From an uncultured Stenotrophomonas sp. (GTDB lineage: Bacteria > Pseudomonadota > Gammaproteobacteria > Xanthomonadales > Xanthomonadaceae): a stretch of 64,000 nucleotides of DNA. The notes under the pieces are model-generated. The model did no database searches and was not told the DNA's origin. It worked only from the letters and a program-made list of their open reading frames with translations. Location of the stretch: contig CAJYNG010000006.1 of NCBI GenBank assembly GCA_913775725.1, positions 19,063 through 83,062 of the forward strand. Direction: 5' to 3'. A program made the position numbers and the translations under genes. Positions 13,997 through 58,911 of this stretch are shown here, piece by piece; position 1 is the stretch's first letter; every line of letters begins with the position of its first letter.

Positions 13997-15349
13997 TCAA
14001 CCCACCGGCAACAGAATCGACACGCACAACCCGCCATCACCACGGTTCTGCAACGACACCCGCCCACCGTGCGCTTCCACGATCTCGCGGGTCAGCGCCA
14101 AACCCAATCCAGTGCCATTGCGCTTGGTCGAATAGAACGGCATCAGTGCGTTCTGCAGCACCTGCTCGTTCATGCCCTTGCCGCGGTCAAGCACGTCCAG
14201 GCGCAGCCACTGCGGCAGCCGCGCAAGGTGCACCTGTACGTCATCGTTGGGCGGATCAGCTTCGGCGCAGGCTTCATGCGCGTTCTTCAGAAGATTCAAC
14301 AACGCCTGCCCGAACTGGGCGATGTCGATGCGGCTGCTCAGCTCCTCGTCCGGTTCGCGATCCATGGTGAACGGGATCTGCTGGCGCAGGCTGGACAGGA
14401 AGGGGGCCCAGTGCACGGTCTGCAGCTGCGGCTGCGGCAGCTTGGCAAAGCGTGCGTAGCCCCGGATGAAGCCTTCCAGATGGCGCGCACGGTCTTCGAT
14501 GGTGGTGAAGATCTCCGGCAGCCTGTCGAAGCGCTCGCGCTGCACCAGCACGCCACCGGAATGCGCCAGCGATGCGATCGGTGCCAGCGAATTGTTGAGC
14601 TCGTGGCTGATCACCCGGATCACCTTCTTCCAGGTCTGCACTTCCTGACGGCGCAGTTCGGCGGTCAGCAGGCGCACCAGCAGCAGGTCGTGCGGGCGGC
14701 CATTGAGCTGGAACGCGCGGCGCGACAGGTGGTAGACCTGCTCGTCATCCTCATCGCCGTCTTCGCCTTCCGCATGCACCGCGAACAGGCTGTCACCGCC
14801 ACGGGCGATGGCATCGCGCAGCTCCACCGGCACCTGCTCCAGCACCTCTTCCAGACGCTGGCCTTCCAGCTTCCAGCCGCCATGCAGCAGCTTGCGCGCG
14901 GCCAGGTTGGAGAACACCACGCGGGCGATGCCGTCGCCGCCGGATGCGATCAGCAGCATCGCCACCGGCGTGTTCTGCACCATGGTGTCCAGCAGCAGCT
15001 CGCGCTGCACCAGGCCCTGCCGCTGCGCACGCAGCACGTCACCCAGTTCGCGGTGCGCCTGCACCAGGTCGCCCAGTTCGTCGTTGCCGGGCCAGTGCAC
15101 GCCGAAGTTGTATTCACCGTCGCGGTAGCTGCTGGTGGTCCCCGACAGCGCACGCATCAGTGAACGCACCGGTGCGGTGGCACGGCGCAGGGTCCACCAC
15201 ATCAGCGACAGCAGGATCAACGCCGACACCGTGGTGACTACCCAGCCATGGTCCATCCAGTACGCCAGCAGCCACGGCAACGCCGCAGCCAGCGCCAGCA
15301 CCGGCAGCAGGCGCAGGAACAGGCGGAAGGTGAACGAGCGACGTTTCAT
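13997..15349 (-). CDS. sensor histidine kinase, NtrY-like
   Basis: 450-residue membrane kinase paired with the NtrC-type activator upstream. It has two membrane helices (about 11-30 and 37-53) with almost no periplasmic loop, so the stimulus is probably sensed in or near the membrane. A HAMP-like and a PAS-like region follow (about 55-230). The phospho-acceptor is His249 in VISHELNNSLAPI, and the ATP-binding motifs are LNLLKNAHEA, DRGKGM, FYSTK and GTGLGLAL. Its start overlaps the activator stop by 4 bp (ATGA), showing coupling. The nearby ABC exporter operon is the likely target of the pair. Confidence 0.93.
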   Translation of the reverse strand: MKRRSFTFRLFLRLLPVLALAAALPWLLAYWMDHGWVVTTVSALILLSLMWWTLRRATAPVRSLMRALSGTTSSYRDGEYNFGVHWPGNDELGDLVQAHRELGDVLRAQRQGLVQRELLLDTMVQNTPVAMLLIASGGDGIARVVFSNLAARKLLHGGWKLEGQRLEEVLEQVPVELRDAIARGGDSLFAVHAEGEDGDEDDEQVYHLSRRAFQLNGRPHDLLLVRLLTAELRRQEVQTWKKVIRVISHELNNSLAPIASLAHSGGVLVQRERFDRLPEIFTTIEDRARHLEGFIRGYARFAKLPQPQLQTVHWAPFLSSLRQQIPFTMDREPDEELSSRIDIAQFGQALLNLLKNAHEACAEADPPNDDVQVHLARLPQWLRLDVLDRGKGMNEQVLQNALMPFYSTKRNGTGLGLALTREIVEAHGGRVSLQNRGDGGLCVSILLPVG

Positions 15350-16692
15350 TCGCGTGGGATGCCGTGCCGATCCATGCGCCGGTACAGCGCCTGGCGGCTT
15401 AGACCGAGTTCGGCGGCGGCCTGTGCGATGACGCCGTGGTTGCGCGCCAGCACATCCTCGATGCGCGCTCGGTCGGGATCATTGCCGGCACTGGCCACCG
15501 CGCGTGGTGCGGGGGCAGCACGAGGCAGGTTGAGATCGGTCACTTCGATGCGGTTGCCGGTGGCCAGCAGCTCGGCGCGCTGGATCACGTTGCGCAGCTC
15601 GCGCACGTTGCCTGGCCAGGGGTGCCGCTGCAAGGCCGCGGTGGCCGCAGTGGACAACGGCTTGCCAGCGGTCAGGAAACGCTCGGCCAGTGGCACGATG
15701 TCGCCCGGGCGTTCGGCCAGCGGCGGCAGCACCAGCTCCACGGTGTTGAGCCGGTAATAGAGGTCTTCGCGGAAGGTACCGTCGCGGATCATGGCCGGCA
15801 GGTCAGCGTTGGTGGCGCTGACCACGCGCACCTTCACCTGGCGTTCGCGGTTGGAACCCAGGCGTTCGAAGCGGCCGGTTTCCAGTACGCGCAGCAGTTT
15901 CATCTGGCCGCCCAGCGACAGGTTGCCGATCTCATCCAGGAACAGGGTGCCGCCATCGGCGGCTTCGAACTTGCCTTCGCGTGCCTTGTTGGCACCGGTG
16001 TAGGCGCCGGCATCGGCACCGAACAGTTCGGCTTCGATCAGCTCCGACGGCAGTGCGCCGCAGTTGACCGTGATGAACGGCCCCTTGGCCACCAGCGAGT
16101 TGGCCTGGATGATCTGCGCGATCTTTTCCTTGCCCGCACCATTGGGGCCGGTGATCAATACCGGCAGCTCGGAGCGCGCGACCTGGCAGGCCAGCGCGAT
16201 CACGCGCTCGCTGGCGGGGTCGGCGAAGACCGCGCCGCACAGGTCGTACTTCTCTTCCAGCGCGTTGCGCTGGCGCAGCTCACGGCTGCGGCGCCGGTCC
16301 AGTTCGCGGCGCGCCTCGGACAGTTCCAGCAGGTTGTTGACCGTGGTCATCAGCTTGCGATCGTCCCACGGCTTGGCCAGGTAGTCGGCCGCACCGGCCT
16401 TGACCAGATCCACCGCGCTGCTGAGGTGGGTCCAGGCCGTCAGCAGGATCACCGGCAGATCGGGATGGCGCGCGCGGATCTGCGCGAACAGGGCCTCGCC
16501 CTCTTCGCCGGAGGTGGTGTCTTCGCTGAAGTTCATGTCCTGGATCACCAGGTCGACCGGCTGTGACTCCAGCAGGGCCAGCCCTTCGGACGGGCTCTGC
16601 GCCTGCAGGGTGTCGATGTCGTGCAGGGAGAACAGCACGTCCAGTGCGGTGCCCACACTGGCGTTGTCGTCGATGATCAGGATTGCAGGCAT
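15346..16692 (-). CDS. NtrC-type sigma-54-dependent response regulator
   Basis: 448 residues. The receiver domain has phospho-acceptor D52, T85 and K107. The AAA+ domain has Walker A GPNGAGKE (182-189), a GAYTGA loop (229-234) in place of the usual GAFTGA, Walker B GGTLFLDEIG and FREDLYYRL. A Fis-type helix-turn-helix ends the protein (AAAELGLSRQALYRRMDRHG). It should activate sigma-54 RNA polymerase when phosphorylated by the adjoining kinase. The start MPAILIIDD opens the receiver fold directly; longer upstream frame is not domain-like. The Walker A wording GPNGAGKE differs from the common GESGTGKE. A sigma-54 promoter with palindromic sites lies upstream of the exporter operon at 21477-21570, the presumed target. 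Confidence 0.95.
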   Translation of the reverse strand: MPAILIIDDNASVGTALDVLFSLHDIDTLQAQSPSEGLALLESQPVDLVIQDMNFSEDTTSGEEGEALFAQIRARHPDLPVILLTAWTHLSSAVDLVKAGAADYLAKPWDDRKLMTTVNNLLELSEARRELDRRRSRELRQRNALEEKYDLCGAVFADPASERVIALACQVARSELPVLITGPNGAGKEKIAQIIQANSLVAKGPFITVNCGALPSELIEAELFGADAGAYTGANKAREGKFEAADGGTLFLDEIGNLSLGGQMKLLRVLETGRFERLGSNRERQVKVRVVSATNADLPAMIRDGTFREDLYYRLNTVELVLPPLAERPGDIVPLAERFLTAGKPLSTAATAALQRHPWPGNVRELRNVIQRAELLATGNRIEVTDLNLPRAAPAPRAVASAGNDPDRARIEDVLARNHGVIAQAAAELGLSRQALYRRMDRHGIPRE

Positions 16693-16816
16693 CACATGGT
16701 TCTGCAGAAAGGGATGGGCGGCGCCGATGGAGCCGTTCGTGTCCATGTACCGGGAGAGCCCGGCGCCACCCATCAAGCATAGCCAAACCCGTGGCGCCAC
16801 AGGGGCACCATCGGAG

Positions 16817-16843
16817 GCCGGGCCGTCGACGCAGCCCGGCCCG
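16817..16843. other. GC-rich hairpin between exporter and regulator genes
   Basis: GGCCGGGC-CGTCGACGCA-GCCCGGCC dyad in the 165-bp gap between the second permease and the response regulator. It lacks a T-tract on either strand, so it may lower read-through or set mRNA ends without fully separating the genes. Confidence 0.5.
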
Positions 16844-16857
16844 TGTGGTGCGGGGCC

Positions 16858-18072
16858 TCAGGTACCCCGGGTGGCGACCGCCGGGGGGACAGCTGCAGCG
16901 CGGCGGGCCGGGCCGAACACGGCGATCTGGCCCAGCGCCCACAGCAGCAGTGCACCCAGCGGCAGGTACAGCAGCGGCATGCGTGGCAGCTCGTACATGT
17001 TCATCAGGGCCAGGTTGATCGCATAGGCGGCGAGCATGCCCAGCACGATACCCAGCGTGGCCAGCAGGAAGTTCTCGGTCTGGAAATAGCGCAGGATCTG
17101 CCCACGGGTGGCACCGAGTGCGCGGCGGATGCCGATCTGCTTGCTGCGCTGCTGCACCCAGAAGCTGGCCAGGCCGATGATGCCCAGTGCGGTGACCACC
17201 AGCAACGAGATGCAGACGGTGATCAGCAGGCCAACCATCGCACGATCGTTCTTGAAGTAATCCTTGCGCTGATCCTCGTAGGTCTCCTTCTCGCGCACCA
17301 GCCGATTGGGGTCATTGCGTTCAAGCGCAGCGATCGCGCCCTTGAGCACTTCCTCGCGCCGTTCCGGGGCGGTACGCAGCACATATGGGCCCTGGGTGAA
17401 GTCGGTTCGCACCGGCAGGACCATCGACAGCGTCGTGTTGTTGTTGTAGTCGGTGGGAGTCGCCAGCGCGGCGACGATGCCGACCACGTGCAGCGGCTGC
17501 TTGCCCATGTAGAACGTCTTGCCCAGTGCACTCTCGCCCGGGTACAGCTTGTCGGCGAGGGTGCGGCTGATGATCACCGAGGACGCCGTATTGGATGAGG
17601 CGTTCTTCTGTGCGTCCTCGAAATTGCTGTACTCGCTGGACTGGAAGTCACGGCCGGCGGTCAGCTGCAGCCCGAGCGTGGGCAGCCCGCCTTCGCCGAA
17701 CATGTACATGGTGACGAAGGCGGTTGGCCGCTCCTGTTCCTGTTTAAGCGAAACGCTGGTGTTGGAGGAGTTCGGGCGGAACGGCAGCTGGTTGACCTTG
17801 GCTGCGGCAGTCACGCCGGGCACCGCGCGCAGGGCCGACAGGTCTTCCTGGGTGCGGGACTGACCGTTGGTCTGCTTGCCGATGCCACTGACCCGGACGA
17901 ACACCAGTTCGTTCTCGGCCAGGCCGCTGGTCTGGCTGATCCGTTCCACGCGCTGGGTGACCAGGAACAGGGCATTGCAGACGATGGCGCAGGTCAGGGC
18001 AACTTCCAGCACGATCAGGGCGGCGGCCGTCTTGTGCCGGCGCAGGGTGCTGAGGATGGGGCGGATATCCAT
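16858..18072 (-). CDS. MacB/FtsX-type ABC permease (second)
   Basis: 404-residue permease of the macrolide-exporter/LolC type: an N-terminal membrane helix (about 17-38), a large extracytoplasmic MacB-like domain, then three C-terminal helices (around 283-305, 335-355 and 370-390). The tail motif QQRSKQIGIRRALGATRGQILRYFQTE is the FtsX-family coupling region. It starts 21 bp after the first permease, so the two probably form a heterodimer with the one ATPase. The substrate is unknown: such pumps move peptides, lipids or drugs. Confidence 0.92.
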   Translation of the reverse strand: MDIRPILSTLRRHKTAAALIVLEVALTCAIVCNALFLVTQRVERISQTSGLAENELVFVRVSGIGKQTNGQSRTQEDLSALRAVPGVTAAAKVNQLPFRPNSSNTSVSLKQEQERPTAFVTMYMFGEGGLPTLGLQLTAGRDFQSSEYSNFEDAQKNASSNTASSVIISRTLADKLYPGESALGKTFYMGKQPLHVVGIVAALATPTDYNNNTTLSMVLPVRTDFTQGPYVLRTAPERREEVLKGAIAALERNDPNRLVREKETYEDQRKDYFKNDRAMVGLLITVCISLLVVTALGIIGLASFWVQQRSKQIGIRRALGATRGQILRYFQTENFLLATLGIVLGMLAAYAINLALMNMYELPRMPLLYLPLGALLLWALGQIAVFGPARRAAAVPPAVATRGT

Positions 18073-18093
18073 GGGAGGTCCTCGTACTCGTGC

Positions 18094-19395
18094 TTACTGC
18101 GACTTGAGCTGGATGGCCGGGGTGACCTGCATCGCGCGCCAGGCGGGCAGGAAACCGGCGGCGAGGCTGGCGAACAGGGTCAGGCCGATGGCCAGCAGCA
18201 GCATGCTGCCGTCCAGGTGGGCCAGATCCGCGTAGTCCACGGGTTGCTGGCGTACCGCGTACAGGCCAAGCAGCGCCAGGCCGATGCCAAGCACACCGCC
18301 GGCAACGCCGATTGCACCGGCTTCAACCAGACACTGCAGGAAGATCTGCCCACGGCTGGCACCGAGGGCGCGACGCACGCCGATCTCGCCGCTGCGGCGC
18401 AGGAACTTGGCCAGCAGCAGGCCAACCGTATTGACCAGGCAGACGCCGAGGAAGCCCAGTGCCAGCCACATCTGCAGGCGCACGTCGCTGGGCACGGCGT
18501 TCTTGAAGGTCAACCACTCCATCACCGGGCGCAGCCGCACGTTGGTGGGGCGCTCGAAACGCCCCGCTGCACGCTGCTGGTCCGAGTAGTTGACCAGGTA
18601 GCTGCGGTAGTCCTCAACCTTGGCCGGGTCCAGCTCTACCCAGTACTGGATCCAGCTGCACGGCGCGCTGATCGAGTTGCTGCTGCCATCCGGATTCTCG
18701 CCGAAGCAGTTCATGTTGCCGTTGCTGCCGAACTCCAGGTCCATCGCAGTGGAGAACGGTGCCAGCAGGTCTTCATCCTTGCCGTAGTTGCCGGTGGTCA
18801 GATCGAAGAAGTGGGGTTCGGGGCTCCACTCCTTCATCACGCCGATCACCCGAAGCGAGTGGCCGTTGAGACGGATCTCGCGCCCCGTGCTGTCGGCGCC
18901 CTGGAACAGCTTGTCGTTGATCGCCTTCGACAGTACCACCACGCGGCTGCGGTTGTCATCGTCGCTGCTGCTCCAGGCACGCCCGTACTGCATGGGCACG
19001 TCGAACATCGGGAAGAAATCAGCCGACGTCCAGCGCGTATCCACCGAGAAGGGCTTGAGCGTGCTGAGCTCCGGCTCCACCGTGCCACCGCCCGCACTCA
19101 TCATCGCCTGGCGGACGCCGCGCTTCTCGCGCAGCAGGGTCTCGGCGTCGCGCCGGGTCATCTGCTCTTCGGGCTCCTCGCCGGGGGTATAGCCCCCCCG
19201 CGGGCGTGGATCGACCTGCACATAGAACAGGCGGTCGCTCTTGCCTGGAATCGGGTCACCGGAGAGCACGTGGAACACGGTCAGCGTGGTCATCGAGGCA
19301 CCAATGCCCAGCGCGATGGCGACCACCATCAGCGCGGTCAGTATCTTGTTGCGGTGGAAGCTGCGCACCGCCAGTCGGGCGTAGTAGGCGAACAT
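18094..19395 (-). CDS. MacB/FtsX-type ABC permease (first)
   Basis: 433-residue permease of the same architecture: N-terminal helix about 20-42, a periplasmic MacB-like domain to about 310, then three helices. The family coupling segment is RRSGEIGVRRALGASRGQIFLQCLVEAG. It differs enough from the second permease that they are paralogues, not a recent duplication. It lies 10 bp after the ATPase gene. Confidence 0.92.
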   Translation of the reverse strand: MFAYYARLAVRSFHRNKILTALMVVAIALGIGASMTTLTVFHVLSGDPIPGKSDRLFYVQVDPRPRGGYTPGEEPEEQMTRRDAETLLREKRGVRQAMMSAGGGTVEPELSTLKPFSVDTRWTSADFFPMFDVPMQYGRAWSSSDDDNRSRVVVLSKAINDKLFQGADSTGREIRLNGHSLRVIGVMKEWSPEPHFFDLTTGNYGKDEDLLAPFSTAMDLEFGSNGNMNCFGENPDGSSNSISAPCSWIQYWVELDPAKVEDYRSYLVNYSDQQRAAGRFERPTNVRLRPVMEWLTFKNAVPSDVRLQMWLALGFLGVCLVNTVGLLLAKFLRRSGEIGVRRALGASRGQIFLQCLVEAGAIGVAGGVLGIGLALLGLYAVRQQPVDYADLAHLDGSMLLLAIGLTLFASLAAGFLPAWRAMQVTPAIQLKSQ

Positions 19396-19405
19396 GGTCG
19401 AACCC

Positions 19406-20131
19406 TCACTCGTTGACGGCGACGATGTGGCGCGGCGGAGTGGCCAGCACCGGCTCGCGGACCAGGTCGGTCACCTGACCATCGACGATGTGCACGTTGC
19501 GCTGCGCGCGCGCGGCCAGTTCCGGGTCGTGGGTGACCATCACGATGGTGGTGCCGGCGGCGTTGATCTCCTCCAGCAGCTCCATCACGCCGCGGGCCAT
19601 CTGCGTGTCCAGGTTGCCGGTCGGTTCGTCGGCCAGCAGCAGGCGCGGGCTGCCGGCCAGGGCACGCGCGATGGCCGCGCGCTGCTGCTGGCCACCGGAC
19701 AGTTCATTCGGGTAGTGCTTCATGCGCGAGCCGAGACCGACCTGGCTCAGCGCCTTCTCGATACGCTCGCGGCGCTCGTTGGCGCTCATCTTCCGATAGC
19801 GCAGCGGCACGTCCACGTTGTCGAACAGGTTCAGGTCGGGGATCAGGTTGAAGCCCTGGAAGATGAAGCCGATCTTCTGGTTGCGCAGGCGGCTGCGGGC
19901 GTCGTCACCCAGCGTGCTCACATCCTGGCCGTCCAGCATGTAGGTGCCGCTGGTGAAGGTTTCCAGCAGGCCGGCGATGTTGAGGAAGGTGGTCTTGCCG
20001 GAGCCTGACGGGCCGGTGACGGCGACGAACTCACCTTCCTTGACCTGCAGTTCCAGCGAGCGCAGTGCGTGGGTTTCCACCTGTTCGGTGCGGAAGACCT
20101 TGGCGACCGAACGCATTTCGAGCATGTACAT
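19406..20131 (-). CDS. MacB/LolD-type ABC transporter ATPase
   Basis: 241 residues with Walker A GPSGSGKTT, Q-loop, signature LSGGQQQRAAIARAL, Walker B LLLADEPTGNLD and the switch His in MVTHD. It belongs to the MacB/LolD/FtsE group, whose ATPases act through mechanotransmission with FtsX-fold permeases. The leader MYMLEM offers alternative starts three residues apart. The gene lies between adaptor and permease genes (35 and 10 bp gaps), as a single operon. Confidence 0.95.
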   Translation of the reverse strand: MYMLEMRSVAKVFRTEQVETHALRSLELQVKEGEFVAVTGPSGSGKTTFLNIAGLLETFTSGTYMLDGQDVSTLGDDARSRLRNQKIGFIFQGFNLIPDLNLFDNVDVPLRYRKMSANERRERIEKALSQVGLGSRMKHYPNELSGGQQQRAAIARALAGSPRLLLADEPTGNLDTQMARGVMELLEEINAAGTTIVMVTHDPELAARAQRNVHIVDGQVTDLVREPVLATPPRHIVAVNE

Positions 20132-20166
20132 GGTGTGTCCTCTCTCCAGGATTCAGGTATCAGGTA

Positions 20167-21444
20167 TCAGTTGACGGAGACGCGTTCGGCGTCCTTGAAC
20201 AGGTCGCTGCCGGAGACCACGATGCGGTCGCCCGGCTGCACACCCGACTTGATTTCCACTTCGCCCAGGCTGCTGACGCCCAGTTCCACCGGACGCCGCA
20301 CCGCGGTACGGCCATCCATCACGTAGGCCATGCCGTTGCCCTGTTCGACGAACGGACCACGCTCGACCTTCAGCACGTCCTTGCGGGTGTCGAGCAGCAC
20401 GCGCACCGACATCCGCTGGCTCTGGCGCAGGCCTTCCGGCTGCGCGCTGGCGAAGCGCACGCGGGCATTGACCTCGCCGTTGACCACTTCCGGCGACACC
20501 GCGCTGATCTCGCCCGGGAACGGCTGGCCGTTGCCGCCGGTCAGCTGTGCGGGCATGCCGATTGCCAGGTCACGGGCGAAGCTTTCCGGCACCTTGATCT
20601 CGACCACGAACTTGGACAGGTCGACCACGCCCAGCACCGGCGCATTGGCGGCCAGGTTGGTGGACTGGACGGCCTGCACCTGGCCGACCTGGCCATCGAA
20701 CGGTGCACGCAGGGTGAGCGCATCGACCTGGCGCTGTACTTCAGCCACCACGGCCTTCTGGCGGTCGGCCAGCAGGCGCTTGTTGCGGGCATCCAGATCG
20801 GCGCCCTGGCTCTGCAGGCGGGCATCGGTGGTGGCGTTGGCCAGGGTGATGTCGGCCTTCTTCAGCGAGTCCTTGGCCTTGGCCAGATCGATCTGCGGCA
20901 CCGCACCGCCGTCGTAACCGCGCTGGTAGCGCTGCAGGTCGCGGTCGGCGGCCTGTCGTTCGATGGTGGCCTGGTCGGTTTCCTTGCGCGACTTGGCGCG
21001 GGCCAGGGTGGCGTCCAGCGCGGCGCGGCTGGCCTCGGCTTCCAGACCGGCCAGGGTAGCCTGCTCCTGGGCCAGCTTGCTGCGCAGTTCCGGGCTGTCG
21101 ATGACCGCCAGCTCCTGGTCCTTCTTGACCACGTCGCCGGCGACCACCTTCAGGTCTACGGTGCCGGCCGAGATGGCGTACAGGATCGGGCTGTTGGCGG
21201 CGATCACGCGGCCGTCAGCGGCGATGTCGCGGACCAGGTCGCCGCGCTTCACTTCGGCGATGCGCACGCGGCTGCTGTCGAAAGAGCGGCTGGCATTGGA
21301 CCAGGCGTGCACGGCCCAGCCGATGCCGGCGAGCAGCACGATGGCGCCCAGTGCCGGCCAGCGGTAGCGCTGCCAGTTGGCGCGGGTGGTGCCGGCCGGG
21401 GCGGAGGAAACGATCTGGTCCTGTGCGGAAGTGTCGCGGATCAT
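20167..21444 (-). CDS. HlyD/MacA-type periplasmic adaptor
   Basis: 425 residues with one N-terminal membrane anchor (about 30-50, WPALGAIVLLAGIGWAVHAW), a lipoyl/barrel-sandwich segment, a long Ala/Gln/Arg/Lys coiled-coil hairpin (about 105-235) and a beta-barrel tail with VVSGSDLF. It should bridge the ABC permeases to an outer-membrane channel, probably TolC-like, encoded elsewhere. MIRDTSAQ is chosen as start: it gives a normal short cytoplasmic leader and lies about 22 bp downstream of the expected transcription start of the sigma-54 promoter. It is the first gene of the leftward operon. Confidence 0.92.
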   Translation of the reverse strand: MIRDTSAQDQIVSSAPAGTTRANWQRYRWPALGAIVLLAGIGWAVHAWSNASRSFDSSRVRIAEVKRGDLVRDIAADGRVIAANSPILYAISAGTVDLKVVAGDVVKKDQELAVIDSPELRSKLAQEQATLAGLEAEASRAALDATLARAKSRKETDQATIERQAADRDLQRYQRGYDGGAVPQIDLAKAKDSLKKADITLANATTDARLQSQGADLDARNKRLLADRQKAVVAEVQRQVDALTLRAPFDGQVGQVQAVQSTNLAANAPVLGVVDLSKFVVEIKVPESFARDLAIGMPAQLTGGNGQPFPGEISAVSPEVVNGEVNARVRFASAQPEGLRQSQRMSVRVLLDTRKDVLKVERGPFVEQGNGMAYVMDGRTAVRRPVELGVSSLGEVEIKSGVQPGDRIVVSGSDLFKDAERVSVN

Positions 21445-21476
21445 CGGATGCGTGCCTGACGGTGGTAGCCAATACC

Positions 21477-21494
21477 AAGCACGTAGCGTGCCAA
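21477..21494 (-). promoter_or_regulatory. sigma-54 (RpoN) promoter of the adaptor-ABC operon
   Basis: Minus strand reads TTGGCACGCTACGTGCTT: GG and GC exactly 10 bp apart and only one mismatch to TTGGCACGNNNNTTGCT. Transcription would begin near 21467, about 22 bp before the adaptor start codon. Confidence 0.88.
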
Positions 21495-21536
21495 CTTTAT
21501 TTCCTTTCAGGTCAACAGGTTGGGAGGCGTGCTGAA

Positions 21537-21570
21537 GTGTCCGGGTGTCCGCGGACACCTTTCCGGACAC
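21537..21570. promoter_or_regulatory. nested activator-binding palindromes (UAS)
   Basis: A perfect GTGTCCGCGGACAC (21545-21558) lies inside an outer dyad GTGTCCGG (21537-21544) / CCGGACAC (21563-21570). Its centre is about 85 bp upstream of the predicted start, the distance typical for NtrC-type activators. Further GGACA half-sites occur at 21582-21586 and CCGGACAC at 21598-21605, reaching the glmS promoter. Confidence 0.75.
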
Positions 21571-21647
21571 TTTCATTAAGCGGACAGGAGGGGGAAGCCG
21601 GACACGCAGGCTAGAATGCGCCGATCGTCTTCAAGGAAACGCGTGAC

Positions 21648-52950: not shown

Positions 52951-52978
52951 GTTTACAAACAAACAAGCATGTATGTAT
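52951..52978. promoter_or_regulatory. SmeT operator
   Basis: Pseudo-palindrome beginning GTTTACAAACAAACAAGCAT and ending GTATGTAT, AT-rich against a GC-rich background. It matches the 28-bp SmeT binding site described for S. maltophilia, where it overlaps the divergent smeT and smeDEF promoters. Confidence 0.85.
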
Positions 52979-53133
52979 ATTTCGCACCCATCATTCCCGT
53001 CGTGTGCGTGGCAGGCCCGTCCGGCTCCCACTACACCCGGGTGGGCGCGATCTGCGGGGCTTTCGCCGGAACACGGGGGAGAGTCGTCGTATCAGTGTCT
53101 TCTGAGATTCCTTCCTCCAAGAGCCTTTCCGTC

Positions 53134-54318
53134 ATGTTGCTGAGCCGAATCCGACCCTTTGCACTGTCGCTGGCAATCGCCGCGACCGTGGCTGCCTGCG
53201 GCGGCCAACCCCAGGCCCCCGAACAGGGCCCGGGTGACGTCACTGTGGTCACGCTGAAGTCCGAGACCGTGGGCCTGACCCGCGAACTGCCGGGCCGTAC
53301 CAATGCCTTCCTGGTTGCCGAAGTGCGCCCGCAGGTCAATGGCATCGTCGCCAAGCGCCTGTTCACTGAAGGTGGCATGGTCAAGGCCGGCGAGCCGCTG
53401 TACCAGCTCGACGACGCCAGCTACCGCGCCCAGGCCAACAACGCCCGCGCCCAGCTGGCCCGCGCCGAAGCCACTGCCAATGCCGCCCGTCTGAGCGCCA
53501 AGCGCATCACCGAGCTGGCCAAGGTGGACGCGGTCAGCCAGCAGGACCTGGAAAACGCCGTGGCTGCGCAGAAGCAGGCCGAGGCTGACGTCGGCGCCGC
53601 CAAGGCCTCGCTGGATGCGGCCAACGTCACCCTCGGCTACGCCCGCATCACCGCGCCGATCAGCGGCCGCATCGGCAAGTCCAGCGTCACCCAGGGTGCG
53701 CTGGTCAACGCCGGCCAGGCCAATGCACTGGCCACCGTGCAGCAGCTGGACCCGATCTATGTCGACCTGACCCAGTCCTCGGCCGAGCTGCTGCAGCTGC
53801 GCCGCGAACTGGCCGCCGGCCGCCTGCAGGACAACCAGACCCTGCCGGTCAGCATCCTGATGGAAGACGGCAGCACCTTCGAGCACAAGGGCACGCTGGA
53901 GTTCTCCGAAGTCAGCGTCGATCCGGCCACCGGCAGCTTTGGTCTGCGCGTGAAGGTGGACAACCCGGACGGTCTGCTGATGCCGGGCATGTACGTGCGC
54001 GCGGTGATCGGCGGCGGCGTGCGCAGCGATGCGGTGCTGGTACCGATGGCCGGCATCGCCCGCGATCCGAAGGGTGACACCTCCGCGATGGTGGTCGACA
54101 AGGACAACAAGGTCGAAGTGCGCCCGGTCAAGGTCAGCCGCACGGTTGGCGACAAGTGGCTGGTCGAGGACGGTCTGAAGGCTGGCGACAAGGTCATCGT
54201 CGAAGGCCTGCAGAAGATCGGCCCCGGCATGCCGGTCAAGGCCACCGAGAAGGGCGCTGCGCCGGCCAAGCCGGCAGCCGCCGCCCAGCCTGCCGCTCCG
54301 GCCGGCGACGCGAAGTAA
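53134..54318 (+). CDS. smeD: RND efflux periplasmic adaptor SmeD
   Basis: 394-residue lipoprotein adaptor of the SmeDEF pump. Signal MLLSRIRPFALSLAIAATV with lipobox VAAC, a lipoyl domain split around a coiled-coil hairpin (about 95-165), a beta-barrel and an MP domain, and an Ala/Pro-rich tail. It links SmeE to SmeF. MLLSRIR is chosen as start because it gives the lipoprotein signal; the frame is open upstream through the operator region. It is 12 bp before smeE. Confidence 0.95.
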   Translation: MLLSRIRPFALSLAIAATVAACGGQPQAPEQGPGDVTVVTLKSETVGLTRELPGRTNAFLVAEVRPQVNGIVAKRLFTEGGMVKAGEPLYQLDDASYRAQANNARAQLARAEATANAARLSAKRITELAKVDAVSQQDLENAVAAQKQAEADVGAAKASLDAANVTLGYARITAPISGRIGKSSVTQGALVNAGQANALATVQQLDPIYVDLTQSSAELLQLRRELAAGRLQDNQTLPVSILMEDGSTFEHKGTLEFSEVSVDPATGSFGLRVKVDNPDGLLMPGMYVRAVIGGGVRSDAVLVPMAGIARDPKGDTSAMVVDKDNKVEVRPVKVSRTVGDKWLVEDGLKAGDKVIVEGLQKIGPGMPVKATEKGAAPAKPAAAAQPAAPAGDAK

Positions 54319-54330
54319 GCGGAGAACCCC

Positions 54331-57300
54331 ATGGCACGCTTTTTCATCGATCGACCCATCTTTGCATGGGTGATCGCCATCATCATCATGCTCGCCGGCG
54401 GCCTGGCCCTGTTCAAGCTGCCGGTCTCGATGTACCCCAACGTCGCACCGCCGGCGGTGGAAATCAGCGCCACCTATCCGGGTGCATCGGCCAAGGTGGT
54501 CGAGGACTCGGTGACGCAGATCATCGAGCAGAACATGAAGGGCCTTGATGGCCTGATCTACTTCTCCTCCAACAGCTCGTCCAACGGCCAGGCCACCATC
54601 ACCCTGACCTTCGAGAGCGGCACCAACCCGGACATCGCCCAGGTGCAGGTGCAGAACAAGCTGCAGCTGGCCATGCCGCTGCTGCCGCAGGAAGTGCAGC
54701 GGCAGGGCATCAACGTGGCCAAGTCCAGCTCGGGCTTCCTGAACGTCATCGCGTTCGTGTCCGAGAACGGCAGCATGGACGCCAACGACATCGCCGACTA
54801 CGTCGGTTCCAATGTCGTCGACCGTCTGAGCCGCGTGCCGGGCGTGGGCAACATCCAGGTGTTCGGTGGCAAGTACGCCATGCGTATCTGGCTGGACCCG
54901 AACAAGCTGCATACCTATGGCCTGTCGGTTGCGGAAGTGACTGCAGCGATCAAGGCACAGAACGCCCAGGTGGCCATCGGCCAGCTCGGCGGTGCGCCGT
55001 CGATCAAGGGCCAGCAGCTCAACGCCACCATCAACGCGCAGTCGCGCCTGCAGACCCCGGAACAGTTCCGCAACATCATCGTGCGCGGTGCGCAGGACGG
55101 TGCCGAGCTGCGCCTGGGTGATGTCGCCCGCGTCGAGCTGGGTGCGGAATCGTACGACTTCGTCACCCGCTACAACGGCCAGCCGGCCAGCGGCCTGGCG
55201 GTCACCCTGGCCACCGGCGCCAACGCGCTGGATACCGCCGCCGGCGTGGATGCCGCGCTGCAGGACATGAAGAGCTTCTTCCCAGCCGGGCTGAAGGCCG
55301 AGATCCCGTACGACACGACCCCGTTCGTGCGCGTGTCGATCAAGGGCGTGGTGCAGACCCTGATCGAAGCGATCGTGCTGGTGTTCGTGGTGATGTACCT
55401 GTTCCTGCAGAACTTCCGCGCCACCCTGATTCCGACCATCGCCGTGCCGGTGGTGCTGCTGGGTACCTTCGGCGTGCTGGCGATGCTGGGCTTCTCGGTG
55501 AACATGCTGACCATGTTCGCGATGGTGCTGGCCATCGGCCTGCTGGTGGACGATGCCATCGTGGTGGTGGAGAACGTCGAACGCATCATGTCAGAAGAGG
55601 GCCTATCGCCGCTGGAAGCCACCCGCAAGTCGATGGGCCAGATCACCGGTGCGCTGGTGGGTATCGGCCTGGTGCTGTCGGCGGTGTTCGTGCCGATGGC
55701 CTTCATGAGCGGCTCAACTGGCGTGATCTACCGCCAGTTCTCGGCCACGATCGTCTCGGCGATGGCATTGTCGGTGCTGGTCGCGATCGTGCTGACCCCG
55801 GCGCTGTGCGCGACCATGCTCAAGCCGCTGAAGAAGGGCGAGCACCATGTTGCCCATCGCGGCCTGGCCGGTCGCTTCTTCAACGGCTTCAACCGAGGTT
55901 TCGACCGCACCAGCGAAAGCTACCAGCGTGGCGTGCGCGGCATCATCCACCGTCCGTGGCGCTTCATGGGCATCGTGGCGGCATTGTTCGTGCTGATGGG
56001 CGTGCTGTTCGTGCGCCTGCCCAGCTCGTTCCTGCCCAACGAAGACCAGGGCGTGCTGATGGCGCTGGTGCAGGCGCCGGTGGGTGCCACCCAGGAACGC
56101 ACGCTGGAATCGATCGCGGCACTGGAAAACCACTTCCTGCAGAACGAAAAGGATGCGGTGGACTCGGTGTTCTCGGTGCAGGGCTTCAGCTTCGCCGGTA
56201 TGGGCCAGAACGCCGGCATGGCGTTCGTCAAGCTGAAGGACTGGAGCGAGCGTGACGCCAACAATGGCGTGATGCCGATCACCGGCCGTGCGATGGCGGC
56301 GCTGGGCCAGATCAAGGATGCCTTCATCTTCGCCTTCCCGCCGCCGGCCATTCCGGAGCTGGGTACCGCCTCGGGTTACACCTTCTTCCTGAAGGACAAC
56401 AGCGGCCAGGGCCACGAGGCACTGGTGGCCGCGCGCAACCAGCTGCTGGGCCTCGCCGCCGGCAGCAAGAAGCTGGCCAACGTGCGCCCGAACGGCCAGG
56501 AAGACACGCCGCAGTTCCGCATCGACATCGACGCGGCCAAGGCGACTTCGCTGGGGCTGTCGATCGACCAGGTCAACGGTACGCTGGCCGCTGCATGGGG
56601 CAGCTCGTACATCGACGACTTCGTCGATCGTGGCCGCGTCAAGCGTGTGTTCGTGCAGGCCGACCAGCCGTTCCGCATGGTGCCGGAGGACTTCGATCTC
56701 TGGTCCGTGAAGAACGACAAGGGCGAGATGGTACCGTTCAGCGCGTTCGCCACCAAGCACTGGGACTACGGTTCGCCGCGTCTGGAACGCTACAACGGTG
56801 TGTCGGCAATGGAAATCCAGGGCGAACCGGCCCCGGGTGTTGCCTCCGGTGACGCCATGGCCGAGATCGAACAGTTGGCCAAGCAGCTGCCGGCGGGTTT
56901 CGGCATCGAATGGACGGCGATGTCCTACCAGGAACGTCAGGCCGGCTCGCAGACGCCGCTGCTGTACACGCTGTCGCTGATGATCGTGTTCCTGTGCCTG
57001 GCCGCGATGTATGAAAGCTGGAGCGTGCCGACGGCGGTGCTGCTGGCGGCCCCGCTGGGCATCCTCGGCGCGGTGCTGGCCAACACCTTCAAGGGCCTGG
57101 AGCGCGACATCTACTTCCAGGTGGCGATGCTGACCACGGTGGGCCTGACCAGCAAGAACGCGATCCTGATTGTCGAGTTCGCCAAGGAGAACCTGGAGAA
57201 GGGCGCCAGCCTGATCGAGTCGATCATGCATGCCGTGCGCGACCGCCTGCGTCCGATCGTGATGACCTCGCTGGCCTTCGGCATGGGCGTGGTACCGCTG

Positions 57301-57453
57301 GCGATCTCCACCGGTGCCGGCTCCGGCGCCAAGCAGGCGATCGGCACCGGCGTGCTCGGTGGCATGATCGTCGGCACCGTGCTCGGCGTGTTCTTCGTAC
57401 CGCTGTTCTTCGTGGTGGTGCAGCGCGTGTTCAAGCGCAAATCCGCGACGTAA
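54331..57453 (+). CDS. smeE: RND multidrug efflux pump SmeE
   Basis: 1040-residue inner-membrane proton/drug antiporter of the HAE1 family, length like AcrB (1049). It begins [20 protein letters not shown] and has twelve membrane helices. The proton-relay aspartates are in helix 4, [20 protein letters not shown], and the relay Lys in [19 protein letters not shown]; two large periplasmic loops form the drug pockets. Known SmeDEF substrates include quinolones, tetracyclines, chloramphenicol and macrolides. A SMAG palindrome separates it from smeF. Confidence 0.97.
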
Positions 57454-57461
57454 GCGAAACG

Positions 57462-57485
57462 GTAGTGCCGGCCGCTGGCCGGCAT
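57462..57485 (+). repeat. SMAG-type palindrome between smeE and smeF
   Basis: GTAGTGCCGGCCGCTGGCCG, 8 bp after the smeE stop and inside the operon. It could form a hairpin that changes smeF levels relative to smeDE. Confidence 0.85.
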
Positions 57486-57525
57486 TACCTCCTGCCATCC
57501 GGCAGTACCGATGGAAGTCATTCCC

Positions 57526-58911
57526 ATGAAAAGTGCATCCCTGTTCCTTTCCATTGCCGCCGCGCTCGCGCTCGCCGGCTGCTCCACCCTGGTGCCGAAG
57601 AACACCGCTGTCGCTCCGGCGATTCCGGCACAGTGGCCGGCCGAGGCCGCGCAGGGCGAGGAGGCCGATGTCGCCGCCGTCGGCTGGCGCGATTTCTTCA
57701 CCGATGCGCGCCTGCAGCAGGTGATCGACCAGTCGCTGCAGAACAACCGCGACCTGCGTGTGGCCGTTCTCAATGTTGAACGCGCGCGCGGCCAGTATCG
57801 CGTGCAGCGCGCCGATCGCGTACCCGGCGTGGCTGTCACCGGCCAGATGGACCGCCGTGGTACCGACGCCGGTGTCACCGAGCAGTTCACCGCGGGCGTG
57901 GGTGTGGCAGAGTTCGAGCTGGACCTGTTCGGTCGCGTGCGCAACCTCAGTGAGGCGGCGCTGCAGCAGTACTTCGCCGTGGCTGCCAACCGCCGCAACG
58001 CGCAGCTGAGCCTGGTGGCCGAGACCGCGACGGCGTGGCTGACCTACGGTGCCGACGCGCAGCGGCTGAAGATCGCCGATGCCACGCTGAAGACCTACGA
58101 GGATTCGTTGCGCCTGGCCGAGGCCCGCCATGAACGTGGTGGCAGTTCGGCGCTGGAACTGACCCAGACCCGTACGCTGGTGGAAACCGCGCGCACGGAT
58201 GCCGCACGCCTGCGTGGCCAGTTGGCCCAGGACCGCAACGCGCTGGCGCTGCTGGCTGGTGGCCAGCTGGATCCGGCACTGCTGCCGGACAGCATCGAAC
58301 CGCAGCTGCTGGCGCTGGCACCGCCGCCGGCTGGCCTGCCTAGCGACGTGCTGCTGCAGCGCCCGGACATCATGGCCGCCGAACACCAGCTGCTGGCCGC
58401 AAACGCCAACATCGGTGCGGCACGCGCAGCGTTCTTCCCGAGTATCTCGCTGACTGGCAGCATCGGCAGTGGTTCGAACGAACTGTCCAACCTGTTCGAC
58501 AGTGGCACCCGCGTATGGAGTTTCCTGCCGAAGATCACCCTGCCGATCTTCCAGGGCGGCAAGCTGCGCGCCAACCTGGCCATCGCCAACGCGGATCGTG
58601 ATATCGCACTGGCGCAGTACGAGAAGTCGATCCAGGTGGGCTTCCGCGAAACCGCCGATGCGCTGGCGTTGAATGTCAGCCTGGACGAGCAGGTGAGTTC
58701 ACAGCAGCGCCTGGTGGAAGCGGCCGAACAGGCCAACCGCCTGTCGCAGGCACGCTACGACGCGGGGCTGGACAGCTTCGTCACCCTGCTCGATGCGCGG
58801 CGTACCGCCTACAACGCGCAGCAGACCCAGCTGCAGGCCCAGCTGGCGCAGCAGGCCAACCGCATCACCCTGTACAAGGTGCTGGGTGGCGGCTGGCACG
58901 AGCGCGGGTAA
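57526..58911 (+). CDS. smeF: outer-membrane efflux channel SmeF
   Basis: 461-residue TolC/OprM-type lipoprotein. Signal MKSASLFLSIAAALAL with lipobox LAGC, then two OEP repeats rich in coiled coil (VAVLNVERARGQYRVQRAD; ETADALALNVSLDEQVSSQQRLVEAAEQANRLSQARYDAGL). It completes the SmeDEF tripartite pump. This Met is preferred over one five codons earlier because GGAAG lies before it and it begins the signal peptide. Confidence 0.96.
   Translation: MKSASLFLSIAAALALAGCSTLVPKNTAVAPAIPAQWPAEAAQGEEADVAAVGWRDFFTDARLQQVIDQSLQNNRDLRVAVLNVERARGQYRVQRADRVPGVAVTGQMDRRGTDAGVTEQFTAGVGVAEFELDLFGRVRNLSEAALQQYFAVAANRRNAQLSLVAETATAWLTYGADAQRLKIADATLKTYEDSLRLAEARHERGGSSALELTQTRTLVETARTDAARLRGQLAQDRNALALLAGGQLDPALLPDSIEPQLLALAPPPAGLPSDVLLQRPDIMAAEHQLLAANANIGAARAAFFPSISLTGSIGSGSNELSNLFDSGTRVWSFLPKITLPIFQGGKLRANLAIANADRDIALAQYEKSIQVGFRETADALALNVSLDEQVSSQQRLVEAAEQANRLSQARYDAGLDSFVTLLDARRTAYNAQQTQLQAQLAQQANRITLYKVLGGGWHERG

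What the first reader, a model, noticed from the sequence alone, without database searches (positions are those of the whole stretch)
13997..21605. Two-component, sigma-54-controlled MacAB-like exporter without its own ATPase-permease fusion
Seen: leftward order adaptor, ATPase, permease, permease, NtrC-type activator, histidine kinase, with tight spacing and a 4-bp overlap of the last two. Known: MacB usually fuses ATPase and permease in one chain and is seldom under sigma-54 control. Inference: a self-regulated envelope stress or peptide/lipid export module whose kinase senses the membrane, since it has almost no periplasmic domain. Substrate and outer-membrane partner are unknown. This is the best candidate in the window for an undescribed system.
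Basis: partly seen in the sequence, partly recalled or inferred. Interest (0 to 1): 0.82.

Follow-up and report, generated by a model that had tools for sequence, protein, structure and literature searches.

The report
Sigma-54-switched exporter with swappable permease pairs
A bacterial membrane pump that is apparently switched on by its own two-protein alarm keeps its motor and adaptor almost unchanged but trades and diversifies the outward-facing half of its paired membrane subunits, as if adapting to changing toxins.

Summary
The six genes are real, between glmU and glmS in a Stenotrophomonas genome. The separate ATPase is ordinary. Unusual is that promoter, adaptor, ATPase, regulator and kinase frame 1 to at least 5 co-inherited permease pairs. 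In the S. maltophilia complex the pair comes in allele classes that differ almost only in their periplasmic domains and conflict with the flanking-gene tree (AU p 8e-7 to 4e-4); other genes track one another (r 0.70-0.83), the permeases do not (0.31-0.32). Best reading: an inducible MacAB-like heterodimeric ABC system clearing varied envelope-active compounds, with exchangeable recognition subunits. Function and substrate are inferred; usual outer-membrane docking is doubtful. New variant of a known kind; not found described in ten paper searches.

The parts
20167..21444 (-). periplasmic adaptor (MacA-like), 425 aa, N-terminus with conserved I-x-D-T-S-x-Q-D before one hydrophobic segment (about 29-49)
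   Evidence: TIGR01730 125.3 bits over cut-off 94.9; MacA in PDB E 6e-17; motif columns; hydrophobicity
19406..20131 (-). ABC ATPase, 241 aa, separate chain
   Evidence: PF00005; best PDB match 5xu1 (unfused pneumococcal MacAB-like), also MacB, LolD
18094..19395 (-). permease 1 (P1), 433 aa, 4 TM, periplasmic domain about 43-303
   Evidence: PF12704 + PF02687; hydrophobicity and conservation
16858..18072 (-). permease 2 (P2), 404 aa, 4 TM, periplasmic domain about 41-278
15346..16692 (-). NtrC-type response regulator, 448 aa; receiver, AAA+ with GAYTGA loop, Fis-type HTH
   Evidence: PF00072, PF00158, PF02954; motif columns in 75 aligned relatives
13997..15349 (-). histidine kinase, 450 aa, two TM with a loop of a few residues, SHELNN H-box
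   Evidence: PF02518
21478..21494 (-). -24/-12 sigma-54-type promoter TTGGCACGCTACGTGCT (one mismatch to the recalled consensus used)
   Evidence: conserved in 23 of 23 genus loci
21535..21572 (-). operator (upstream activating sequence): outer inverted repeat AAGTGTCCGG/CCGGACACTT around palindrome GTGTCCGCGGACAC (21545-21558)
   Evidence: 12-mer core conserved in 23 of 23 genus loci
16693..16857 (-). 165-bp gap between P2 and regulator without the operator; probable separate expression of the two-component pair
   Evidence: inference

Best explanation
A dedicated two-component pair controls a MacAB-like ABC system whose permease is a heterodimer of two small MacB-type chains. Supported by sequence: the NtrC-type regulator acts through TGTCC-GGACA palindromes above a sigma-54 promoter of the adaptor gene and probably controls only this operon. 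Inferred: the kinase, which has no periplasmic sensor, reads a signal in the membrane or from the permease itself (as BceS reads BceAB). Shown by comparison: adaptor, ATPase, regulator and kinase are conserved, while the permease pair is a cassette that is multiplied (1 to at least 5 pairs behind one ATPase), exchanged between strains, and diversified almost only in its periplasmic domains. Inferred: the pairs share the one ATPase through their well-conserved cytoplasmic loops, and each periplasmic domain pair recognises a different envelope-active compound, probably peptide- or lipopeptide-like, and moves it out of the membrane/periplasm by mechanotransmission. The system is most likely an inducible envelope-defence exporter with an exchangeable recognition part.
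For: Regulation: operator core and promoter in 23 of 23 genus loci; exact 14-mer once in 4.56 Mb and none at one mismatch; combined pattern in 66 of 297 family genomes, one site in each, reversed control 0 of 297; 39 of 40 such sites fetched with flanks precede the adaptor gene or its remnant. Regulator orthologue (64-70% id) in 6 of 6 order genomes with sigma-54 elements, including two where it is unlinked; best match 38-44% in 5 of 5 without. Half-sites 2-7 in 23 of 23 loci of regulator-bearing order/family/class genomes vs 0 in 5 of 5 lacking it. Operator-promoter distances in 69 loci fall at 54-55 (6), 62-67 (60), 75-76 (3), none between: about one-helical-turn steps. Cassette: 1-5 pairs in 81 loci; P1-P2 identity matrices r 0.944, permutation maximum 0.148; 0 of 81 pairs in multi-pair loci have their nearest relative in the same locus. 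Alleles: differences concentrated in periplasmic domains; classes rejected as clades on flanking genes, AU p 2.6e-5, 3.9e-4, 8.1e-7; control r 0.70-0.83 for six other genes vs 0.31/0.32 for P1/P2, 0.92 between P1 and P2; amino-acid/third-position difference 0.51/0.74 vs 0.09-0.21. Cytoplasmic loop conservation 0.86 vs periplasmic 0.60/0.50. Unfused relatives YknXYZ and the pneumococcal system are reported to protect against peptides (review passages).
Against: No expression, binding or phenotype data. The substrate class is by analogy. The kinase is 92-99% identical to the window's across complex strains with different permease alleles, which does not favour allele-specific sensing. Heterodimer and sharing of one ATPase are inferred from gene pairing. 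Of 23 order/family/class loci in regulator-bearing genomes the exact 12-mer is in only 9 and a strict -24/-12 match in 16; Luteimonas RC10 (L106) has the genes without the strict pattern (its half-sites were not counted). The base before TGC in the -12 element deviates from consensus in most Stenotrophomonas loci. Synonymous divergence is also higher in the periplasmic parts, so age of alleles and selection are not separated. S. maltophilia-complex genes may recombine in general. The family genomes without the pattern (231 of 297) were not searched for the genes.
Confidence: 0.55

Rival explanations
1. Housekeeping trafficking: a LolCDE-like machine that moves an endogenous lipid, lipoprotein or peptide, induced by envelope stress.
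Against: NCBIfam lolCE scores 28.3 and 23.5 against a cut-off of 362.45; best PDB sequence match of P2 is MacB; an endogenous substrate does not predict exchange and diversification of the periplasmic domains or 1-5 pairs; the locus can decay (L162).
Confidence: 0.22
2. The permease periplasmic domains are themselves the target or entry aid of bacteriocins, toxins or phage proteins, and diversify to escape recognition; the transport task is unrelated to the diversity.
For: Discrete, diverged alleles exchanged between strains and restricted to exposed domains resemble receptor escape as much as substrate adaptation.
Against: Does not explain why whole extra pairs are kept in parallel nor the dedicated control; the domains lie in the periplasm, not on the cell surface.
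Confidence: 0.13
3. Ordinary MacAB-type efflux operon; permease divergence is relaxed constraint plus general recombination.
For: Fold and domains are of the MacB/LolCE superfamily; recombination among complex strains is plausible (the flanking-gene correlations are 0.70-0.83, not 1).
Against: Within a class the same domains are constrained (w 0 to 0.23 in the periplasmic domain for the within-class comparisons) while between classes w is 0.19-0.51; six neighbouring genes do not behave so; the divergence is step-like.
Confidence: 0.1

Closest known systems
MacAB-TolC (macrolide/enterotoxin tripartite pump)
   Same: 4-TM FtsX-type permease with MacB periplasmic core; MacA-like adaptor
   Different: ATPase separate; two different permease chains; adaptor tip Leu lost (G/A in 88 of 88); NtrC-type/sigma-54 control; permease arrays
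YknXYZ of Bacillus subtilis and Spr0693-0695 of pneumococcus
   Same: unfused adaptor, ATPase, permease; top structural match of the P2 model is 5xu1_M; peptide protection reported (review passages)
   Different: one permease gene each; Gram-positive; no sigma-54 two-component control (recalled)
LolCDE
   Same: two distinct permeases and one separate ATPase
   Different: ours has an adaptor, falls far below the lolCE curated cut-off, and is variable
BceAB-BceRS flux-sensing modules
   Same: kinase without extracytoplasmic sensor next to an FtsX-type system and a dedicated regulator
   Different: permeases have 4 TM not 10; regulator NtrC-type with sigma-54; adaptor present; relation of kinase and permease untested
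SmaCDEF and MacABCsm of S. maltophilia
   Same: ABC efflux systems of the same species
   Different: SmaCDEF is Smlt1651-4 in the tables seen; this locus lies at glmS, so I take it to be another one (inference, K279a coordinates not seen)

Membership tests
MacAB-TolC tripartite pumps | MacB periplasmic core + FtsX permease | tested here: met
   PF12704 and PF02687 in both permeases; P2 profile match to MacB over positions 11-401
MacAB-TolC tripartite pumps | ATPase fused to permease | tested here: not met
   separate 241-aa ATPase and 433/404-aa permeases
MacAB-TolC tripartite pumps | adaptor hairpin tip motif R-x3-L-x6-S | tested here: not met
   R 88/88, but L-position G 75, A 13; S-position S in 9 of 88; the RND adaptor in the same window has the motif. 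The spelled-out motif is recalled; its name seen in a legend of PMC8277102
MacAB-TolC tripartite pumps | works with an outer-membrane channel | not testable with these tools
   none of the 26 PF02321 matches in the genome lies in the locus; the only ones on its contig are in an RND operon
LolCDE | two distinct permeases with one separate ATPase | tested here: met
LolCDE | lolCE curated model score | tested here: not met
   28.3 and 23.5 bits vs 362.45
LolCDE | lipoprotein release as function | not testable with these tools
   no assay
ADOP / darobactin exporter models | curated score cut-offs TIGR03434, NF038007, NF038008, NF038010 | tested here: not met
   199.8 and 179.1 vs 622.3; 258.7 vs 375; 28.3 vs 700; 46.8 vs 450
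Bce-type sensory modules | 10-TM permease with OmpR-type regulator | tested here: not met
   4-TM permeases, NtrC-type regulator; 10 TM from PMC5985334 passages, OmpR type recalled
Bce-type sensory modules | kinase lacking an extracytoplasmic sensor | tested here: met
NtrC-type sigma-54 activators | receiver, AAA+ with GAFTGA-type loop, Fis-type HTH | tested here: met
   GAYTGA in 73, GAFTGA in 1, GAYTSA in 1 of 75
NtrC-type sigma-54 activators | operator above a -24/-12 promoter of the target | tested here: met
   sequence evidence only, binding not tested

The most novel reading that the evidence does not exclude
A new layout of type VII ABC system: one sigma-54-inducible motor-adaptor frame served by an exchangeable repertoire of heterodimeric permeases, whose diversifying periplasmic domains act as recognition parts (and possibly as the sensors for the kinase), comparable in logic to an innate-immune receptor repertoire against envelope toxins.
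Probability: 0.35. Interest if true: 0.8.

Novelty: new variant of a known kind. Interest (0 to 1): 0.63.

Why it matters
Which compounds MacB-type systems recognise, and with which residues, is to my knowledge largely open. Here nature offers the comparison: the same promoter, adaptor and ATPase with many permease pairs, and strains differing almost only in the periplasmic domains. If true, one ATPase serving several permease pairs and a trade in recognition parts would be a new way for bacteria to update envelope defence, in a genus that includes an opportunistic pathogen known for intrinsic resistance. The candidate operator is defined to the base, so the inducer can be sought directly with a reporter.

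Tried and rejected
Considered and rejected: (a) a wider regulon: at two mismatches the 14-mer has 14 further sites, in all 15 per strand against 35 for the reversed control. (b) Recent tandem duplication as source of arrays: 0 of 81. (c) That the locus is SmaCDEF: tag Smlt1651-4. (d) Anti-phage defence models: only matches of the kind expected for any AAA+ activator or ABC ATPase. (e) The window-wide -24/-12 scan alone says nothing: 106 matches, 113 expected; likewise the 14-mer at up to 2 mismatches in the window, 1 match vs 0.72 expected. (f) A sigma factor gene beside the five regulator-less loci was not searched for beyond listing ORF starts, so that their shared motif is an ECF-type promoter is a recalled resemblance only.

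Rows dropped and limits: loci L053, L054, L055 (paralogues) and L111 (same record as L144) were left out; the regulator-less loci, L048 and the paralogues were left out of the conservation count. L056 is counted as 2 pairs although its second pair lies beyond glmS. Of 25 genus genomes, G015 had no match and G014 was not fetched in full, so 23 were examined; in L063 the kinase is missing only because the region was cut. Five order genomes with weak P1 matches (G028, G029, G031, G032, G039) were not fetched. Of the six five-pair loci, L157 runs to the end of the fetched stretch without a regulator and may be longer; L144 is followed by regulator and kinase in its other copy L111. L178 (G105) has the pattern without a recognised adaptor on a 3.9-kb contig. 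For G034 the -24/-12 element was read by eye; the strict pattern missed it. Allele classes were defined by permease identity; L098 and L102 were added before the AU test. The 40 regions were chosen by the operator pattern, so they are no independent evidence for it; the genus, order and class loci are. The permease fold was predicted for P2 only; its transmembrane part has low confidence.

Literature: 10 searches (one search was wasted by a word that matched 'adopt'; one search was not run). I saw listings, and passages of PMC11356428, PMC12189255, PMC3162934, PMC8986839, PMC9088363, PMC9769791, PMC8277102, PMC5985334; no whole text was read; none described this locus in what I saw. Most subscription journals are not held.
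Full report
What is there. The window lies in a Stenotrophomonas genome: permease 1 (P1) is 97% and 98% identical to that of S. maltophilia D457 and EA1. Six genes run leftward between glmS and glmU (with a small acetyltransferase gene beside glmU): adaptor, ATPase, P1, P2, NtrC-type regulator, histidine kinase. Regulator and kinase overlap by 4 bp. Gaps are 35, 10 and 21 bp up to P2 and then 165 bp before the regulator.

Sigma-54 control. Upstream of the adaptor lies a palindrome, GTGTCCGCGGACAC (21545-21558), inside an outer inverted repeat (21535-21572), and 63 bp from the start of its 12-mer core a -24/-12 promoter TTGGCACGCTACGTGCT (21478-21494). The exact 14-mer occurs once in the 4.56-Mb genome, with no one-mismatch copy. 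In 23 of 23 genus loci examined in full (of 25 genus genomes) the 12-mer core and the promoter are present. A combined pattern occurs in 66 of 297 genomes of the family sample, one site in each, with 0 of 297 for the reversed control; all 17 genomes of the window's genus in that sample are among the 66. I fetched 40 of those sites with flanks; 39 precede an adaptor gene or, in L162, its remnant; the exception is L178. Whether the other 231 genomes hold the genes was not tested; Luteimonas RC10 (L106) holds them without the strict pattern.

Natural experiment. Eleven loci from other families of the order (11 of 16 order genomes, those with strong P1 matches) carry adaptor-ATPase-P1-P2. In six genomes with sigma-54 elements the regulator orthologue is present at 64-70% identity, in two of them (G026, G034) away from the operon. 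In five genomes without such elements the best match is 38-44%. Those five share (T/A)GTAAC-N17-CGTCT upstream, which resembles an ECF-type promoter (recalled). Counting half-sites TGTCCG/CGGACA in 350 bp upstream of the adaptor: 2-7 in 23 of 23 order, family and class loci of regulator-bearing genomes (expected 0.04-0.42), 4-9 in 23 of 23 genus loci, 0 in 5 of 5 loci of genomes lacking the regulator. Among the 23 order/family/class loci the exact 12-mer is found in 9 and a strict promoter match in 16; the others are degenerate. In 69 loci with both exact elements the distance is 54-55 (6 loci), 62-67 (60) or 75-76 (3), with none between, although 50-80 was allowed where loci had been chosen by pattern. 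Steps of about one helical turn fit an activator that must face the polymerase.

Breadth. A regulator match at E 1e-130 or better occurs in 8 of 369 genomes of the class sample and 21 of 398 of the phylum sample (own genome included in both); the genomes with matches all lie in the window's own class. Of 16 loci fetched from other genera of the order and other orders of the class (L216-L231), 15 show adaptor, ATPase, P1, P2 and regulator on one strand (kinase recognised in 14 of these 15); in the sixteenth, L231, which has three pairs, regulator and kinase, the stretch ends before the adaptor would be reached.

The cassette. Around the frame of promoter, adaptor, ATPase, regulator and kinase, the permease pairs vary in number: of 81 loci 57 have one pair, 9 two, 3 three, 6 four, 6 five (one of the 'two', L056, has its second pair beyond glmS). 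One ATPase gene stands before the array. P1 and P2 are inherited together (identity matrices r 0.944; largest of 500 permutations 0.148; 143 pairs from 86 loci). None of 81 pairs in multi-pair loci has its nearest relative in its own locus: these are old paralogues gained and lost, not fresh duplicates.

Alleles. In 18 S. maltophilia-complex comparisons with the window (the more distant L033 set aside: frame genes 84-94%, P1 80%, P2 76%), adaptor, ATPase, regulator and kinase are 92-100% identical; P1 is 80-87% and P2 73-82% except in D457 and EA1 (96-98%). Three classes of pair are seen, with some further variants. Most differences fall in the periplasmic domains (P1 43-303, P2 41-278); P1 321-360 and P2 301-320 have none in the four comparisons made (P2 321-340 likewise none). 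Between the three classes periplasmic dN is 0.155-0.198 (P1) and 0.234-0.323 (P2), w 0.19-0.51; against G020 it reaches 0.57; TM2-4 w is 0.04-0.12; within classes periplasmic w is 0-0.23. The classes are single clades with support 100 on the permease tree and are rejected as clades on the joined frame genes and glmS (AU p 2.6e-5, 3.9e-4, 8.1e-7; 25 strains). As control over 24 strains, third-position distances of six other genes correlate with the rest at 0.70-0.83, P1 and P2 at 0.31 and 0.32 but with each other at 0.92; amino-acid to third-position difference is 0.51 and 0.74 for P1 and P2 and 0.09-0.21 for the six. So the pair travels as a unit and evolves fast in protein sequence. Positive selection is suggested, not proven, because synonymous divergence is also raised in those domains.

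Verdict. I found no description of it in ten searches of open papers, which do not cover most subscription journals.

Noticed in passing
window 52969-58911: RND efflux operon (adaptor, permease with TIGR00915 at 1664 bits, outer-membrane channel), perhaps SmeDEF (inference).
   Followed up: partly
L054 (G000:C11): Paralogous permease pair with its own NtrC-type regulator (35% id) and a kinase-like ORF in the same genome.
   Followed up: no
L053 (G000:C8): P1-P2 pair with no match to this locus's ATPase or adaptor in the 18 kb fetched; it might use an ATPase in trans.
   Followed up: no
L056 12510-15128: S. maltophilia EA1 carries an extra P1-P2 pair on the far side of glmS.
   Followed up: no
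L149-L152, L160, L163, L164, L167, L168, L176, L177: A P2-like permease gene (about 391-409 aa) without a recognised P1 partner, mostly just before the regulator.
   Followed up: no
L042, L043, L069, L071, L072: Regulator-less orthologous operons share (T/A)GTAAC-N17-CGTCT upstream, resembling an ECF-type promoter: a regulatory replacement.
   Followed up: partly
L162: Apparent decayed remnant in one genome: match to an inner part of the adaptor next to the regulator's 3' part, kinase match in two frames, no ATPase or permeases; operator and promoter remain.
   Followed up: partly
L047, L223, L229 upstream of the adaptor: Short ORF that looks like a small membrane peptide just upstream of the adaptor (read by eye).
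   Followed up: no
window 21418-21444 (adaptor N-terminus): Motif I-x-D-T-S-x-Q-D before the TM segment present in nearly all 88 adaptors (first D and T each 86 of 88), also in regulator-less operons; role unknown.
   Followed up: partly
L142: Extra ATPase-like and P2-like genes behind the kinase gene.
   Followed up: no
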